Assembly (NCBI RefSeq): GCF_036323475.1
Contig: NZ_AP028934.1
Location: 1,674,001-1,738,000 of the forward strand
Source of the DNA: Solobacterium moorei
GTDB taxonomy: Bacteria; Bacillota_I; Bacilli_A; Erysipelotrichales; Erysipelotrichaceae
DNA length: 64,000 nt
Direction of reading: 5' to 3'
Shown: in pieces, positions 11,417 through 15,096 of the stretch
Numbering within the stretch: the stretch's first letter is position 1
Layout: the number at the start of each line of letters is the position of its first letter
The notes under the pieces: model-generated
Told to the model about the DNA's origin: nothing
The model's database searches: none
What the model saw: only the letters and a program-made list of their open reading frames with translations
Position numbers and translations under genes: made by a program

Positions 11417-12823
11417 TTAAATCATTTTAAAATGCCTTAAAGCATCCATGATGGCTTCCTCTTTTTCCGGTGTGCATTGTGGAATAACCTGTTTCTCTTT
11501 TTTCGATTTGTTATAATGCTCCCTCAGTTTAATTCCGCATTTCTTTTTTATCTGAGCAATATATAGTGTAGGTACTTTTAATCCAAATTTATTCCAAACA
11601 TATTCTTTGATTTGAGCATATGTTGCCTTGCTCTCTGCACTTGTCAAATCCAGCTCATCCAGCTTAATTTCAACATCTATATGCTTATCGACATCGAGTT
11701 TGGACAAAAGTGCTACCGTCTCGACGTGTGGTGTAAAACAGAATAGATCAACTGGTACAATCTTTTTAATCTTATATCCAGCTTTCTTCAACGGTTCAAT
11801 ATCTGTTATCTGTGTATATGGATTACAAGAGATATACACAACTCTATCTGGAGAAAGCTGTGCTAGTTTATGCATGAATGGTAGTGTCATTCCAGATCTT
11901 GGTGGATCTAGAATTACTACATCTGGTTTTATATTCATGCGTTGAATAAACTCTGCCGCATCTGCTGAATAGAATTCTGTATTTAATAATTTGTTGTGCT
12001 TTGCATTGTTTTTAGCATCTCGTATAGCTTGTGGATTGATTTCAACTCCAATAACATGCTTTGCAGATTGAGCCGCTAGTAAAGAGATTGTTCCAATACC
12101 ACAACATGCATCCAATACAACATCAGTATCTTTAATCTTCGCAAGTGATAGTGCTCTACGATAGAGCACTTCCGTTTGTTCTGGATTAACTTGATAGAAT
12201 GACTTTGATGAAACGCGGAACTCTAAGCCACCAATACGGTCAGTGATATAACCTGGACCATATAATACTCTTTCATCTTTTCCAAGTATCATCGATGTAT
12301 GAGCACGATTAAAATTCAGAATAATCGTTTTAATCTGTGGAAATTTCTTTACCAGTGCGTTTACGAAATTCTTTGAACTTGGTAGTCCCTTTGAACCAAT
12401 TACGATATCAAGTAAAACATCATTTGTTGCTTTCGAGATACGAATATACGCATGACGTAACATACCCCTACCACTATCTTCATCGTAAATTTCAATACGC
12501 ATGGATTCTGCTAACTTACAGATTGTCGTAAGAATCTCATTTGCGAGCGTATGTTGAATCAAACACATCTCACTTGGCACTTTACGATGACTATTTTCTT
12601 CATACATGCCTGCATAGATCCTGTTAGTCTTTTTATCTCTTGCAAAGCTTGCATAGATTTTATGACGATAGTGATACGGATCTTTCATGCCAAGCACCGG
12701 TTCAACTGCTTTGGTACGGAAAATCTTACGCATCTCTTCACGTTTCATTTTTAATTGTTCTTCATATGGGACATCGATGTATGCACATCCACCACACTTT
12801 TTACTCACTGGGCAATACTTCAT
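11417..12823 (-). CDS. rlmD: 23S rRNA (uracil-C5)-methyltransferase, RlmD/RumA type
   Basis: This 468-residue SAM-dependent enzyme methylates a uridine C5 in 23S rRNA. It starts directly with the iron-sulfur motif (C4, C10, C13, and C87), with no N-terminal TRAM domain. The SAM motif VLDACCGIGTISL lies at about 236-248, and the catalytic cysteine is in VYISCNPYT. The catalytic core ends near HVETVALL; about 85 further residues form a basic tail ending HFKMI. The ICE abuts the 3' end. The start at 12823 is the only in-frame choice after a TAA stop 21 bp upstream. It has no clear Shine-Dalgarno sequence. Confidence 0.88.
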   Translation of the reverse strand: MKYCPVSKKCGGCAYIDVPYEEQLKMKREEMRKIFRTKAVEPVLGMKDPYHYRHKIYASFARDKKTNRIYAGMYEENSHRKVPSEMCLIQHTLANEILTTICKLAESMRIEIYDEDSGRGMLRHAYIRISKATNDVLLDIVIGSKGLPSSKNFVNALVKKFPQIKTIILNFNRAHTSMILGKDERVLYGPGYITDRIGGLEFRVSSKSFYQVNPEQTEVLYRRALSLAKIKDTDVVLDACCGIGTISLLAAQSAKHVIGVEINPQAIRDAKNNAKHNKLLNTEFYSADAAEFIQRMNIKPDVVILDPPRSGMTLPFMHKLAQLSPDRVVYISCNPYTQITDIEPLKKAGYKIKKIVPVDLFCFTPHVETVALLSKLDVDKHIDVEIKLDELDLTSAESKATYAQIKEYVWNKFGLKVPTLYIAQIKKKCGIKLREHYNKSKKEKQVIPQCTPEKEEAIMDALRHFKMI

Positions 12824-12922
12824 ATGATTGGTATATACAAATTAAGCTCATCCAGCTAAGCAAAATCTGTATACATCTCCTTTCTTGCCCAGATTAGTAT
12901 CGGTCTGGGAAACCGTGTAGAA

Positions 12923-12975
12923 TTGAGATCGTGAATGCGTACTAGAATCTTATATGTTTGTAGCTTTGACTACGT
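12923..12975 (+). repeat. IS110 left-end inverted repeats
   Basis: This end contains TTGAGATCGTGAAT (12923-12936) and TTTGTAGCTTTGACTACGT (12957-12975). Both are inverted relative to copies at the right end, with 20 bp between the ATCGTGAAT core and the inner repeat. Confidence 0.7.
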
Positions 12976-13134
12976 GAGGTATTATCTGACCGCTTCGTTG
13001 TATAGAAATTGTTATTAGTTAGATGAGCCCTTCTTTTATTGAAGTGAGTTCCCATTTCGCACCATATTCTTTGATACTTCTGAAACGGTGGTACTGGTAT
13101 TCATCACAGCTTAATTTTGAAAGGAGTCATTTAC
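12976..13134 (+). ncRNA. Candidate IS110 bridge RNA region
   Basis: About 160 bp without an open frame separates the left-end repeats from the transposase start. IS110-group elements are known to transcribe a structured bridge RNA from this upstream non-coding region, with loops that pair to target and donor DNA. The length and position fit. The transposase ribosome-binding site (AAAGGAG, 13120-13126) is at the 3' edge. I could not resolve the two loops by eye, so boundaries are provisional. Confidence 0.45.
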
Positions 13135-14310
13135 ATGATCAACATTGGTATCGATATCGGTAAGTTCAAGCACTGTGCTCCAGTACTCGATGATTCTACC
13201 GGTGAAGTTCTCATCAAACCCTTCTTCCTCACAAACGATCGGAAGGGATTTGATCTACTCTATTCTAAAACGAAACAATTTATTCGCAGGAAACATTCCG
13301 TCGGTATGGAAGATACCGGTCATTATATGATCAATCTCACAAATTACCTACTCGACAAGAAATTCACTGTCAAATACATCAATCCAAGGGCTACCTGCCT
13401 ACGTCGCAAAGAACTTGGTATATCTGCCAAGAATGACAGAAAAGATGCGCTTTTAATAGCAGAAATGTTAAGTGAGAAGAAATTCTGGCGTTCCATTTCT
13501 CCACGTTCTATTGAAAATGGTAAATTTCGTGATATCACTCGTCTTTATTACCAACTCCAAGAGCAGCAGAATCAAGATATGAATCGACTACAGAGAGCGC
13601 TAGATATCGTATTTCCAGAAGTGAATTCACTTTCATGGACACGCTACTCAAAAGCGTATATGAAATTCTTGTCAGCTTACCCTAGTGCTTCATCAATCGC
13701 CTTTGAAGATATCCGTAATCTTCGCAAGGCACTCAAAACAGAGGGAAGAGGCAGACAATGCAAAGTGACTGCAGAAGAAATCAGATACCTTGCCAAGCAT
13801 TCTGTTGGCGAAGATAGCAGCTCCATTGATTTGGAAGTAACATCTATCATCGCTATCATCAATGCCAGAGAAGAACAGATTCGTATTTTGGAAAAGAAAA
13901 TAGAAGAATTCAGTCACAAGCTAAACTCTCCTATCATTTCCATCCCTGGCATTTCTCATATCTCAGGAATGACAATTCTTGCGGAAATCGGAGATATCAA
14001 TCACTTTCATAACACGGAAAATTTGATATCCTTTGCAGGAATGGATCCGCTTGTCTACCAGTCCGGCAAATATGACGCTACACATATGCCTATATCCAAG
14101 CACGGCTCAAGATATATGCGCAAGGCTCTGTATCAAGCCGTATTCACTGTCTGTAAATATTCTCCGACCTTCCATGCCTATTATACTAAAAAACGTAATC
14201 AAGGGAAGTCTCACAGATGTGCCCAAGGTCATTGTGCACGAAAGCTTCTCCGTGTGATATACAAACTTCTTAGTTCGAACTCTCCCTATGATCAAAATCA
14301 TATTCACTGA
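13135..14310 (+). CDS. IS110-family transposase
   Basis: This 391-residue recombinase has an N-terminal DEDD domain starting INIGIDIGKFKH (first acidic residue Asp7). It has the central ARKDALLIAEML-like block KNDRKDALLIAEML (about 100-113). The C-terminal Transposase_20 domain contains SIPGISHISGMTILAEIGDI and LISFAGMDPLVYQSG, where the catalytic serine is expected. The ATG at 13135 is preceded by AAAGGAG with 8-bp spacing and is preferred over an upstream in-frame TTG at 13117. The length is normal for intact IS110 enzymes, so the element may be active. Confidence 0.93.
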   Translation: MINIGIDIGKFKHCAPVLDDSTGEVLIKPFFLTNDRKGFDLLYSKTKQFIRRKHSVGMEDTGHYMINLTNYLLDKKFTVKYINPRATCLRRKELGISAKNDRKDALLIAEMLSEKKFWRSISPRSIENGKFRDITRLYYQLQEQQNQDMNRLQRALDIVFPEVNSLSWTRYSKAYMKFLSAYPSASSIAFEDIRNLRKALKTEGRGRQCKVTAEEIRYLAKHSVGEDSSSIDLEVTSIIAIINAREEQIRILEKKIEEFSHKLNSPIISIPGISHISGMTILAEIGDINHFHNTENLISFAGMDPLVYQSGKYDATHMPISKHGSRYMRKALYQAVFTVCKYSPTFHAYYTKKRNQGKSHRCAQGHCARKLLRVIYKLLSSNSPYDQNHIH

Positions 14311-14338
14311 TTGATTCATCAACCTACAATAATGATCT

Positions 14339-14394
14339 ACATAGTCAAAGCTACAAATGTAGTTGTTTTAACTGTACTCTATTCACGATTTCAA
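14339..14394 (-). repeat. IS110 right-end inverted repeats
   Basis: Read on the minus strand this end gives TTGAAATCGTGAAT (14394-14381) and TTTGTAGCTTTGACTATGT (14357-14339). These are near-identical to the left-end blocks and separated by 23 bp rather than 20. Confidence 0.7.
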
Positions 14395-14403
14395 AGATCA
14401 TTT

Positions 14404-14435
14404 TTGAGACTCTTCTGGATTTTTGTGAGTCTCAA
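14404..14435 (+). terminator. Terminator-like hairpin between the IS110 element and the HAD-like gene
   Basis: The perfect 9-bp arms TTGAGACTC (14404-14412) and GAGTCTCAA (14427-14435) are followed by TATTTTT on the plus strand. The minus-strand side, past the HAD-like gene, has only a short A/T stretch, so it works best for plus-strand transcripts leaving the IS. Confidence 0.6.
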
Positions 14436-14448
14436 TATTTTTCAAATT

Positions 14449-15096
14449 TTACTTGATTTTCTTATAGTTAAATACCTCTTTTAATGTATATACAACGTTA
14501 TCTGTTACCTTGCGTAAAACTTCATATGATTGATGACCATTTGCAATCAGTACACAATCATGAATACCAAGTGCTTCCGCAACTTCTTTATCATGAACAG
14601 TATCACCGATGTATTTACATTCAGATGGTTCCGCATGACTCTTTTCCATCCAAATCTTTGCCATCTCGACTTTTGAAGCCGCAAGCATATTATCAATCCC
14701 TAGAATTTCATCAAAGTATTGATCAATTCCTAGTAATTTACACTGCTCTACAAGTTTATCATGACGAGATGCGGACAGAATAACATTGCAATATCCAAGC
14801 TGGATTGCCTTTTCTACCATAGTAATAAAATCATCCATCAAAGAACACTCATCGAAACGACGGTCGTATTCTTGATTAAATTCAAGAGATACTTCCTCAT
14901 AGCTTTCTGTATCAAAGGTATAACCAATATGGTAATAGTAGTTAATTACCGGAAACGAGAATGTGTTGAGATAGTCTTGTTTTGTGACAGGATACTTCTC
15001 CATTTCCCTCTTTTTTAACATTTCATTTTCAATCGATAAGCACAATTGTAAATCATCTAAAATTGTGCCATTAAAGTACCAAATTAAAGTTTTCAT
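14449..15096 (-). CDS. HAD-superfamily protein lacking the catalytic nucleophile
   Basis: This 215-residue protein has the fold features of phosphoglycolate-phosphatase-like HAD enzymes: a cap region (about 15-85), motif II in VILSASRHD (about 104-112) and motif IV GDTVHDKEVA (about 165-174). Motif I should read DxDGT but reads Tyr7-Phe8-Asn9-Gly10-Thr11. The nucleophilic Asp is replaced by Tyr (codon TAC, one base from GAC) and the second Asp by Asn. The protein is otherwise full length, so it may be a recently inactivated or non-catalytic member. There is no Shine-Dalgarno sequence; a TATAAT box sits 6 bp before ATG. Confidence 0.8.
   Translation of the reverse strand: MKTLIWYFNGTILDDLQLCLSIENEMLKKREMEKYPVTKQDYLNTFSFPVINYYYHIGYTFDTESYEEVSLEFNQEYDRRFDECSLMDDFITMVEKAIQLGYCNVILSASRHDKLVEQCKLLGIDQYFDEILGIDNMLAASKVEMAKIWMEKSHAEPSECKYIGDTVHDKEVAEALGIHDCVLIANGHQSYEVLRKVTDNVVYTLKEVFNYKKIK

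What the first reader, a model, noticed from the sequence alone, without database searches (positions are those of the whole stretch)
12923..13134. Candidate IS110 bridge RNA in the upstream non-coding region
The IS110 transposase is preceded by about 160-210 bp of non-coding DNA inside the element, the position from which IS110-group elements transcribe a bridge RNA that specifies target and donor DNA. Transposase and ends look intact. The element lies between rlmD and a HAD-like gene, giving a concrete target against which RNA loops can be matched.
Basis: partly seen in the sequence, partly recalled or inferred. Interest (0 to 1): 0.6.

Follow-up and report, generated by a model that had tools for sequence, protein, structure and literature searches.

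The report
RNA-guided transposon aiming at ribosome-binding sites
This jumping gene carries a guide RNA whose target-reading part matches the short sequence ribosomes use to find the start of a gene, so it and its relatives land just upstream of gene starts; this one may also bring along a replacement ribosome landing site.

Summary
A second copy and relatives fix the ends, and related genomes hold the empty site. The 305-bp left end folds with compensatory changes and carries all four guides. Right target guide GAGGTAT matches the right flank perfectly and covaries with the flanks of relatives; the donor guides covary with the donor core and ends. A promoter forms at the circle junction.

What is new: the target is the Shine-Dalgarno (SD) sequence. 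This element sits between the SD and ATG of rlmD. In 15 of 16 left junctions of its subfamily an ATG lies 4-9 nt from the left end. Six multi-copy relatives in the order, and two in another family of the class, also insert at SDs.

Most novel reading, not proven: this subfamily cuts the SD off the gene but carries GAAAGGAG plus a terminal hairpin that folds well only on the gene-facing strand, like the split ribosome-binding sites of phage T4 genes 25 and 38. It may restore translation of the gene it hits. The papers held report neither feature.

The parts
12830..14473 (+). whole IS110-group element, 1644 bp
   Evidence: two copies and relatives aligned; empty site in related genomes
12831..12875 (-). 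terminal hairpin of the left end, read towards rlmD
   Evidence: -17.7 kcal/mol on the minus strand, -7.5 on the plus strand; 96.0% against 78.9% pairs kept in 18 left ends
12877..12884 (-). GAAAGGAG facing rlmD: proposed portable Shine-Dalgarno; on the plus strand CTCCTTTC can pair with the transposase's own Shine-Dalgarno
   Evidence: GGAG kept beside the hairpin in nearly all of 18 left ends; alternative pairing
12832..12837 (+). -10 (TATATA) of the circle-junction promoter
   Evidence: 17 bp from TTGATT (14453-14458) when the ends are joined
12887..12909 (+). bridge RNA 5' stem-loop
   Evidence: 4 pairs with changes on both sides
12931..12943 (+). outer stem, 5' arm (pairs with 13096-13107)
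   Evidence: 99.2% of cells paired
12951..12959 (+). left target guide TATATGTTT
   Evidence: 7 of 9 match the left flank CATATGATT; not significant for the subfamily
12960..12973 (+). target-loop stem-loop GTAGCTTTGACTAC
   Evidence: invariant
12976..12982 (+). right target guide GAGGTAT
   Evidence: perfect complement of AT-ACCTC at the right junction; covaries in relatives
12989..13003 (+). inner stem, 5' arm (pairs with 13074-13089)
   Evidence: 3 pairs with changes on both sides
13017..13024 (+). left donor guide AGTTAGAT
   Evidence: matches right end AGTTAAAT; covaries with the right end in relatives
13030..13044 (+). donor-loop stem-loop
   Evidence: 3 of 4 pairs counted have changes on both sides
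13061..13065 (+). right donor guide ACCAT
   Evidence: complement of AT+GGT at the circle junction; ACCAG in CT-core relatives
13074..13089 (+). inner stem, 3' arm
13096..13107 (+). outer stem, 3' arm
13119..13126 (+). Shine-Dalgarno of the transposase
   Evidence: sequence; can pair with 12877-12884
13135..14310 (+). IS110 recombinase, 391 aa, catalytic D7, E59, D101, D104, S310
14351..14369 (+). hairpin CTACAAATGTAG followed by TTGTTTT, probable weak terminator of the transposase mRNA
   Evidence: equivalent hairpin plus T-run in distant relatives by eye; not called by the terminator scan
14453..14458 (+). -35 (TTGATT) of the circle-junction promoter
   Evidence: conserved TTGA[CT]T in right ends
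14463..14473 (+). right end TATAGTTAAAT with donor core AT (14472-14473)
12828..12829 (+). target core TT left of the element
   Evidence: left junctions of relatives end in AT or TT, with one exception
14474..14478 (+). right target ACCTC, the reverse complement of the rlmD Shine-Dalgarno GAGGT
11417..12823 (-). rlmD, the gene hit; its ATG is 6 nt from the element
   Evidence: TIGR00479

Best explanation
A complete IS110-group element whose left end encodes a bridge RNA, transcribed (inferred) from a promoter that forms when the ends join in the excised circle. One loop pairs with the element's joined ends, the other with the target. The right target guide is itself a Shine-Dalgarno sequence, so the recombinase inserts the element, always in the same orientation, at the Shine-Dalgarno of genes: here between the Shine-Dalgarno and the ATG of rlmD. 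Shown by comparison: ends, structure, guide-flank covariation, empty site, start-codon context. Inferred from IS621 and ISEc21: transcription, the RNA-protein complex, and catalysis.
For: Conserved structure with compensatory changes. Right target guide covaries with right flanks (p=5.6e-4 in the subfamily, p<=1e-5 in relatives). Left target guide covaries in CT-core relatives (p<=1e-5). Donor guides covary with the right end, core and left end. Circle-junction promoter with 17-bp spacing. Empty sites. ATG 4-9 nt from the left end in 15 of 16 junctions against 6% by chance; the same target class in distant relatives. Catalytic residues kept.
Against: The left target guide of this subfamily is not significant. 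The RNA is not more stable than shuffles (z -0.28). The outer stem varies little within the subfamily. Permutation treats related elements as independent, although one-per-guide sampling gives the same result. No RNA or transposition data.
Confidence: 0.93

Rival explanations
1. Addition to the best explanation, not a competitor: the left end also repairs the damage. On the gene-facing strand GAAAGGAG lies beside a hairpin whose base is the element's end. Looping out the hairpin puts this Shine-Dalgarno about 9 nt from the ATG (GGAG-A-hairpin-CC-AATCAT-ATG): a portable split ribosome-binding site that keeps the hit gene translated.
For: Only this subfamily loses the native Shine-Dalgarno on the gene side, and only this subfamily shows strand bias of the hairpin: 14 of 14 distinct sequences fold better towards the gene, 43 against 8 G-U pairs; CT-core relatives 12 of 26, 15 against 23. 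96.0% against 78.9% pairs kept on the two strands. z -5.7 against -2.3. GGAG kept beside the hairpin. Precedent: T4 genes 25 and 38 (PMC3014915).
Against: Two G's of the motif may pair with CC beyond the hairpin, so it is free only about half the time. The motif can also serve the plus strand. The subfamily sequences share ancestry. It is not shown that rlmD is transcribed through the element.
Confidence: 0.5
2. CTCCTTTC at the left end works only on the plus strand: in transcripts that start at the circle junction or outside, it pairs with the transposase's own Shine-Dalgarno and represses translation.
For: RNAalifold pairs alignment columns 4-11 with 248-255; both motifs are conserved, in CT-core relatives too.
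Against: Does not explain why the hairpin folds well only on the minus strand in this subfamily. In the divergent G329 element the transposase Shine-Dalgarno has changed while the left-end motif has not.
Confidence: 0.35
3. Insertion near gene starts reflects survival or a protein preference, not RNA guidance.
For: Bias against disrupted coding sequence is common among transposons (general knowledge).
Against: Guides covary with flanks; fixed orientation and 4-9 nt spacing; in the reconstructed site the HAD stop overlaps the rlmD ATG, so the site is not a permissive gap.
Confidence: 0.03
4. The left end is a conserved leader without guide function.
For: None beyond the lack of expression data.
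Against: Paired covariation with targets and with donor ends and the compensatory structure.
Confidence: 0.02

Closest known systems
IS621 and its bridge RNA (Durrant 2024, PMC11208160; Hiraizumi 2024, PMC11208158)
   Same: Recombinase with the same catalytic residues; guide RNA from the left end; left guide, stem-loop, GU linker, right guide order; donor loop; circle-junction promoter
   Different: Target is the Shine-Dalgarno; donor core AT with target core AT or TT instead of CT; predicted nested rather than serial loops; longer right target guide
ISEc21 / seekRNA (Siddiquee 2024, PMC11187229)
   Same: IS110 group, upstream non-coding RNA; natural redirection of a relative (ISMch6) by changed guide bases
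   Different: ISEc21 targets one motif in other transposase genes; here the address is a general translation signal
Split ribosome-binding sites of phage T4 genes 25 and 38 (PMC3014915)
   Same: A hairpin between Shine-Dalgarno and AUG brings them to working distance
   Different: There part of the gene's own mRNA and tested; here carried by a mobile element and only proposed
IS110-family elements in REP sequences (PMC1525189)
   Same: Insertion at a class of repeated non-coding sites
   Different: REPs are repeats; Shine-Dalgarno sequences are functional translation signals of most genes

Membership tests
IS110 family | DEDD recombinase with Transposase_20 domain | tested here: met
   Pfam and NCBIfam above cut-off; residues aligned with IS621
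IS110 family | Insertion without target duplication beyond the core | tested here: met
   Flanks join to the empty site seen in relatives
IS110 bridge RNA | Non-coding RNA encoded upstream of the recombinase with conserved structure | tested here: met
   (structure only; the RNA itself was not observed)
IS110 bridge RNA | Target loop with guides complementary to both sides of the target | tested here: met
   Right guide significant in this subfamily; left guide significant only in CT-core relatives
IS110 bridge RNA | Donor loop complementary to the joined element ends | tested here: met
IS110 bridge RNA | Promoter formed at the circle junction | tested here: met
   TTGATT-17-TATATA on joining the ends; sequence only, the circle was not observed
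IS110 bridge RNA | Target and donor loops as two hairpins in series, as in IS621 | tested here: not met
   Predicted nested stems; a difference from IS621, not a family criterion
IS110 bridge RNA | RNA bound to the recombinase and needed for recombination | not testable with these tools
   needs experiment
IS1111 group | Guide RNA downstream of the recombinase, with subterminal inverted repeats | tested here: not met
   Guides lie upstream, in IS110 order. A 16-bp inverted repeat between the ends exists but lies about 120 bp inside
Split ribosome-binding site (T4 gene 25 type) | Hairpin between Shine-Dalgarno and AUG that is kept in evolution | tested here: met
Split ribosome-binding site (T4 gene 25 type) | Hairpin enhances translation | not testable with these tools
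   needs a reporter test

The most novel reading that the evidence does not exclude
An RNA-guided transposon lineage that uses the Shine-Dalgarno as a near-universal address, with one subfamily that cuts the gene off from its Shine-Dalgarno and supplies its own portable split ribosome-binding site, so that the hit gene stays translated.
Probability: 0.5. Interest if true: 0.85.

Novelty: new variant of a known kind. Interest (0 to 1): 0.74.

Why it matters
Bridge RNA targets described in the papers read here are particular sequences, such as repeats or one gene motif. Aiming at the Shine-Dalgarno gives a mobile element a site upstream of most genes while largely sparing coding sequence, and the strategy recurs in different guide registers and in both halves of the target loop. 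The natural guide changes are ready-made evidence of reprogramming, and the clade offers bridge RNAs with a different predicted stem arrangement and an AT core, useful to those who engineer these recombinases. If the split ribosome-binding site holds, it would be an insertion sequence that evolved to repair the gene it enters, which reporter assays can test directly.

Tried and rejected
Rfam search of the region: one chance match. Viral contigs: no relative of the transposase. Plasmid collection: no match. Two structure-pair runs with a misregistered structure are to be ignored; replace them. Thermodynamic stability of the whole RNA: uninformative. RNAalifold on the CT-core group alone gave a weak structure. 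Left guide significance in this subfamily: not reached. The promoter and terminator scan found no more than chance and, working on the integrated form, cannot see the circle junction. A covariance model was not built; direct pair counts and guide-flank permutations answered the question.

Full report
THE ELEMENT. The transposase at 13135-14310 is an IS110 recombinase; its D7, E59, D101, D104 and S310 fall on the catalytic residues of IS621 in the alignment with the solved chain (residue roles from PMC11208158). The genome (2.6 Mb, one contig) holds two copies 99.4% identical from 12829 to 14477. Aligning these with relatives in the genus shows that the constant part begins at GGTATATAC (12830) and ends at TATAGTTAAAT (14473); what follows differs between elements. 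The non-coding leader is thus 305 bp.

EMPTY SITE. Joining the two flanks gives a HAD-like gene whose stop overlaps the rlmD ATG. Related genomes hold this junction without an element: one over all 600 bases of the query, others across the junction. The element separates the Shine-Dalgarno of rlmD (AAAGAGGT on the minus strand) from its ATG, and replaces the last residues of the HAD-like protein.

THE BRIDGE RNA. The left end is 85-97% identical in relatives whose transposase is 77-94% identical. Eleven left ends support one structure: 97.8% of cells form standard pairs, 10 pairs carry changes on both sides, no shuffle does as well on those measures, and slid versions reach at most 42%. The structure was derived from the same alignment, so the slide control favours it somewhat. 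The 5' stem-loop, inner stem and donor stem-loop have compensatory changes; the outer stem hardly varies here, but in the own-genome family B its arms differ and still pair (read by eye). The predicted arrangement is nested: the outer stem encloses everything and the inner stem encloses the donor loop. IS621 has its two loops in series (PMC11208158). The RNA is not more stable than shuffled sequence, so support comes from conservation and covariation, not energy.

GUIDES. Following the IS621 layout (left guide, stem-loop, GU linker, right guide), the window RNA reads TATATGTTT, GTAGCTTTGACTAC, GT, GAGGTAT. The right guide is the perfect complement of AT-ACCTC at the right junction. Across the subfamily, guides GAGGTAT, AAGGTAT, GGAGGAT and AGGAGAT go with flanks ACCTC or ACCTT, ACCTT, CCTCC (once CCTCA) and CTCCT: 4.78 of 5 matches to the own flank against 2.71 when flanks are permuted (p=5.6e-4, n=9). 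In more distant elements, with a CT core, the right guide gives 3.61 against 2.02 (n=38, p<=1e-5), or 3.91 against 2.18 with one copy per guide (n=22, p<=1e-5), and the left guide 6.77 of 9 against 5.28 (p<=1e-5). The left guide of the window's own subfamily is not significant (4.89 against 4.70, p=0.33). On the donor side the left guide AGTTAGAT follows the right end AGTTAAAT, with AGTTGTAT/AGTTGTCT and AGTTAGAT/AGTTAGCT in relatives; the right guide is ACCAT in AT-core elements, ACCAG in CT-core elements, and ATTAG where the left end begins TAAT. Joining the ends creates TTGATT-17 bp-TATATA, and the same spacing occurs in relatives, as described for the IS621 circle.

THE TARGET IS THE SHINE-DALGARNO. 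In this subfamily 15 of 16 left junctions have an ATG 4-9 nt away that opens a reading frame, against 6% at random positions. Among 44 sites of CT-core relatives 29 have an ATG within 5-20 nt, against 13%, and nearly all begin AGG on the gene side. Six multi-copy elements of the order (7, 4, 3, 2, 3 and 4 copies; the last, family B, is in this genome) insert at Shine-Dalgarno sequences, with single exceptions such as one family B copy (L084). So do elements about 35% identical in another family of the class. In family B the Shine-Dalgarno is read by the left guide instead. I found no report of this in the papers held; ISfinder and the supplements of the bridge RNA papers could not be searched.

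A PORTABLE RIBOSOME-BINDING SITE? CT-core elements leave AGG(AGG) beside the ATG. The window's subfamily leaves none. Its left end, read towards the gene, has GAAAGGAG, then a hairpin ending at the element's edge, then 4-9 nt to the ATG. The hairpin folds at -17.7 kcal/mol on that strand and -7.5 on the other (z -5.7 and -2.3). All 14 distinct subfamily sequences share the bias (43 against 8 G-U pairs), while 26 CT-core hairpins do not (15 against 23). Pair counts give 96.0% against 78.9%. G-U pairs on one strand become A-C mismatches on the other, so the bias points to selection on RNA that reads out into the target gene. With the hairpin looped out, GGAG lies about 9 nt from the rlmD ATG. 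T4 genes 25 and 38 use such split sites (PMC3014915). Against: two G's of the motif may pair with CC beyond the hairpin, the motif can also pair with the transposase's own Shine-Dalgarno, and nothing has been measured. I put this at about 0.5.

VERDICT. The kind of system is known; the target class, and possibly the self-supplied ribosome-binding site, are new to the literature I could search.

Noticed in passing
14342-14400 and 12957-12972: The right end holds a block conserved in all relatives that resembles the reverse complement of the bridge RNA 5' half (16-bp exact inverted repeat 12957-12972 / 14342-14357; TTCACGATTTCAAAGA against TTGAGATCGTGAA). It does not change in step with the left end, and its role is unknown.
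   Followed up: partly
L002 / L078 (second copy in the genome): The second copy has a TAA stop in its transposase but intact ends and RNA; it could move only with help from the window copy.
   Followed up: no
L093, left flank: An element lies directly after 140 bp identical to its own left end, ending exactly at the left target guide: possibly insertion or recombination at the guide-coding DNA itself.
   Followed up: partly
L084, left flank: One family B copy sits after CATATAGTTGTCT, identical to 13 nt of its own right end: a donor-like rather than a Shine-Dalgarno target.
   Followed up: partly
14449-14473: The HAD-like gene now ends inside the element: its tail reads KEVFNYKKIK, where the joined flanks read KEVII and stop.
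   Followed up: yes
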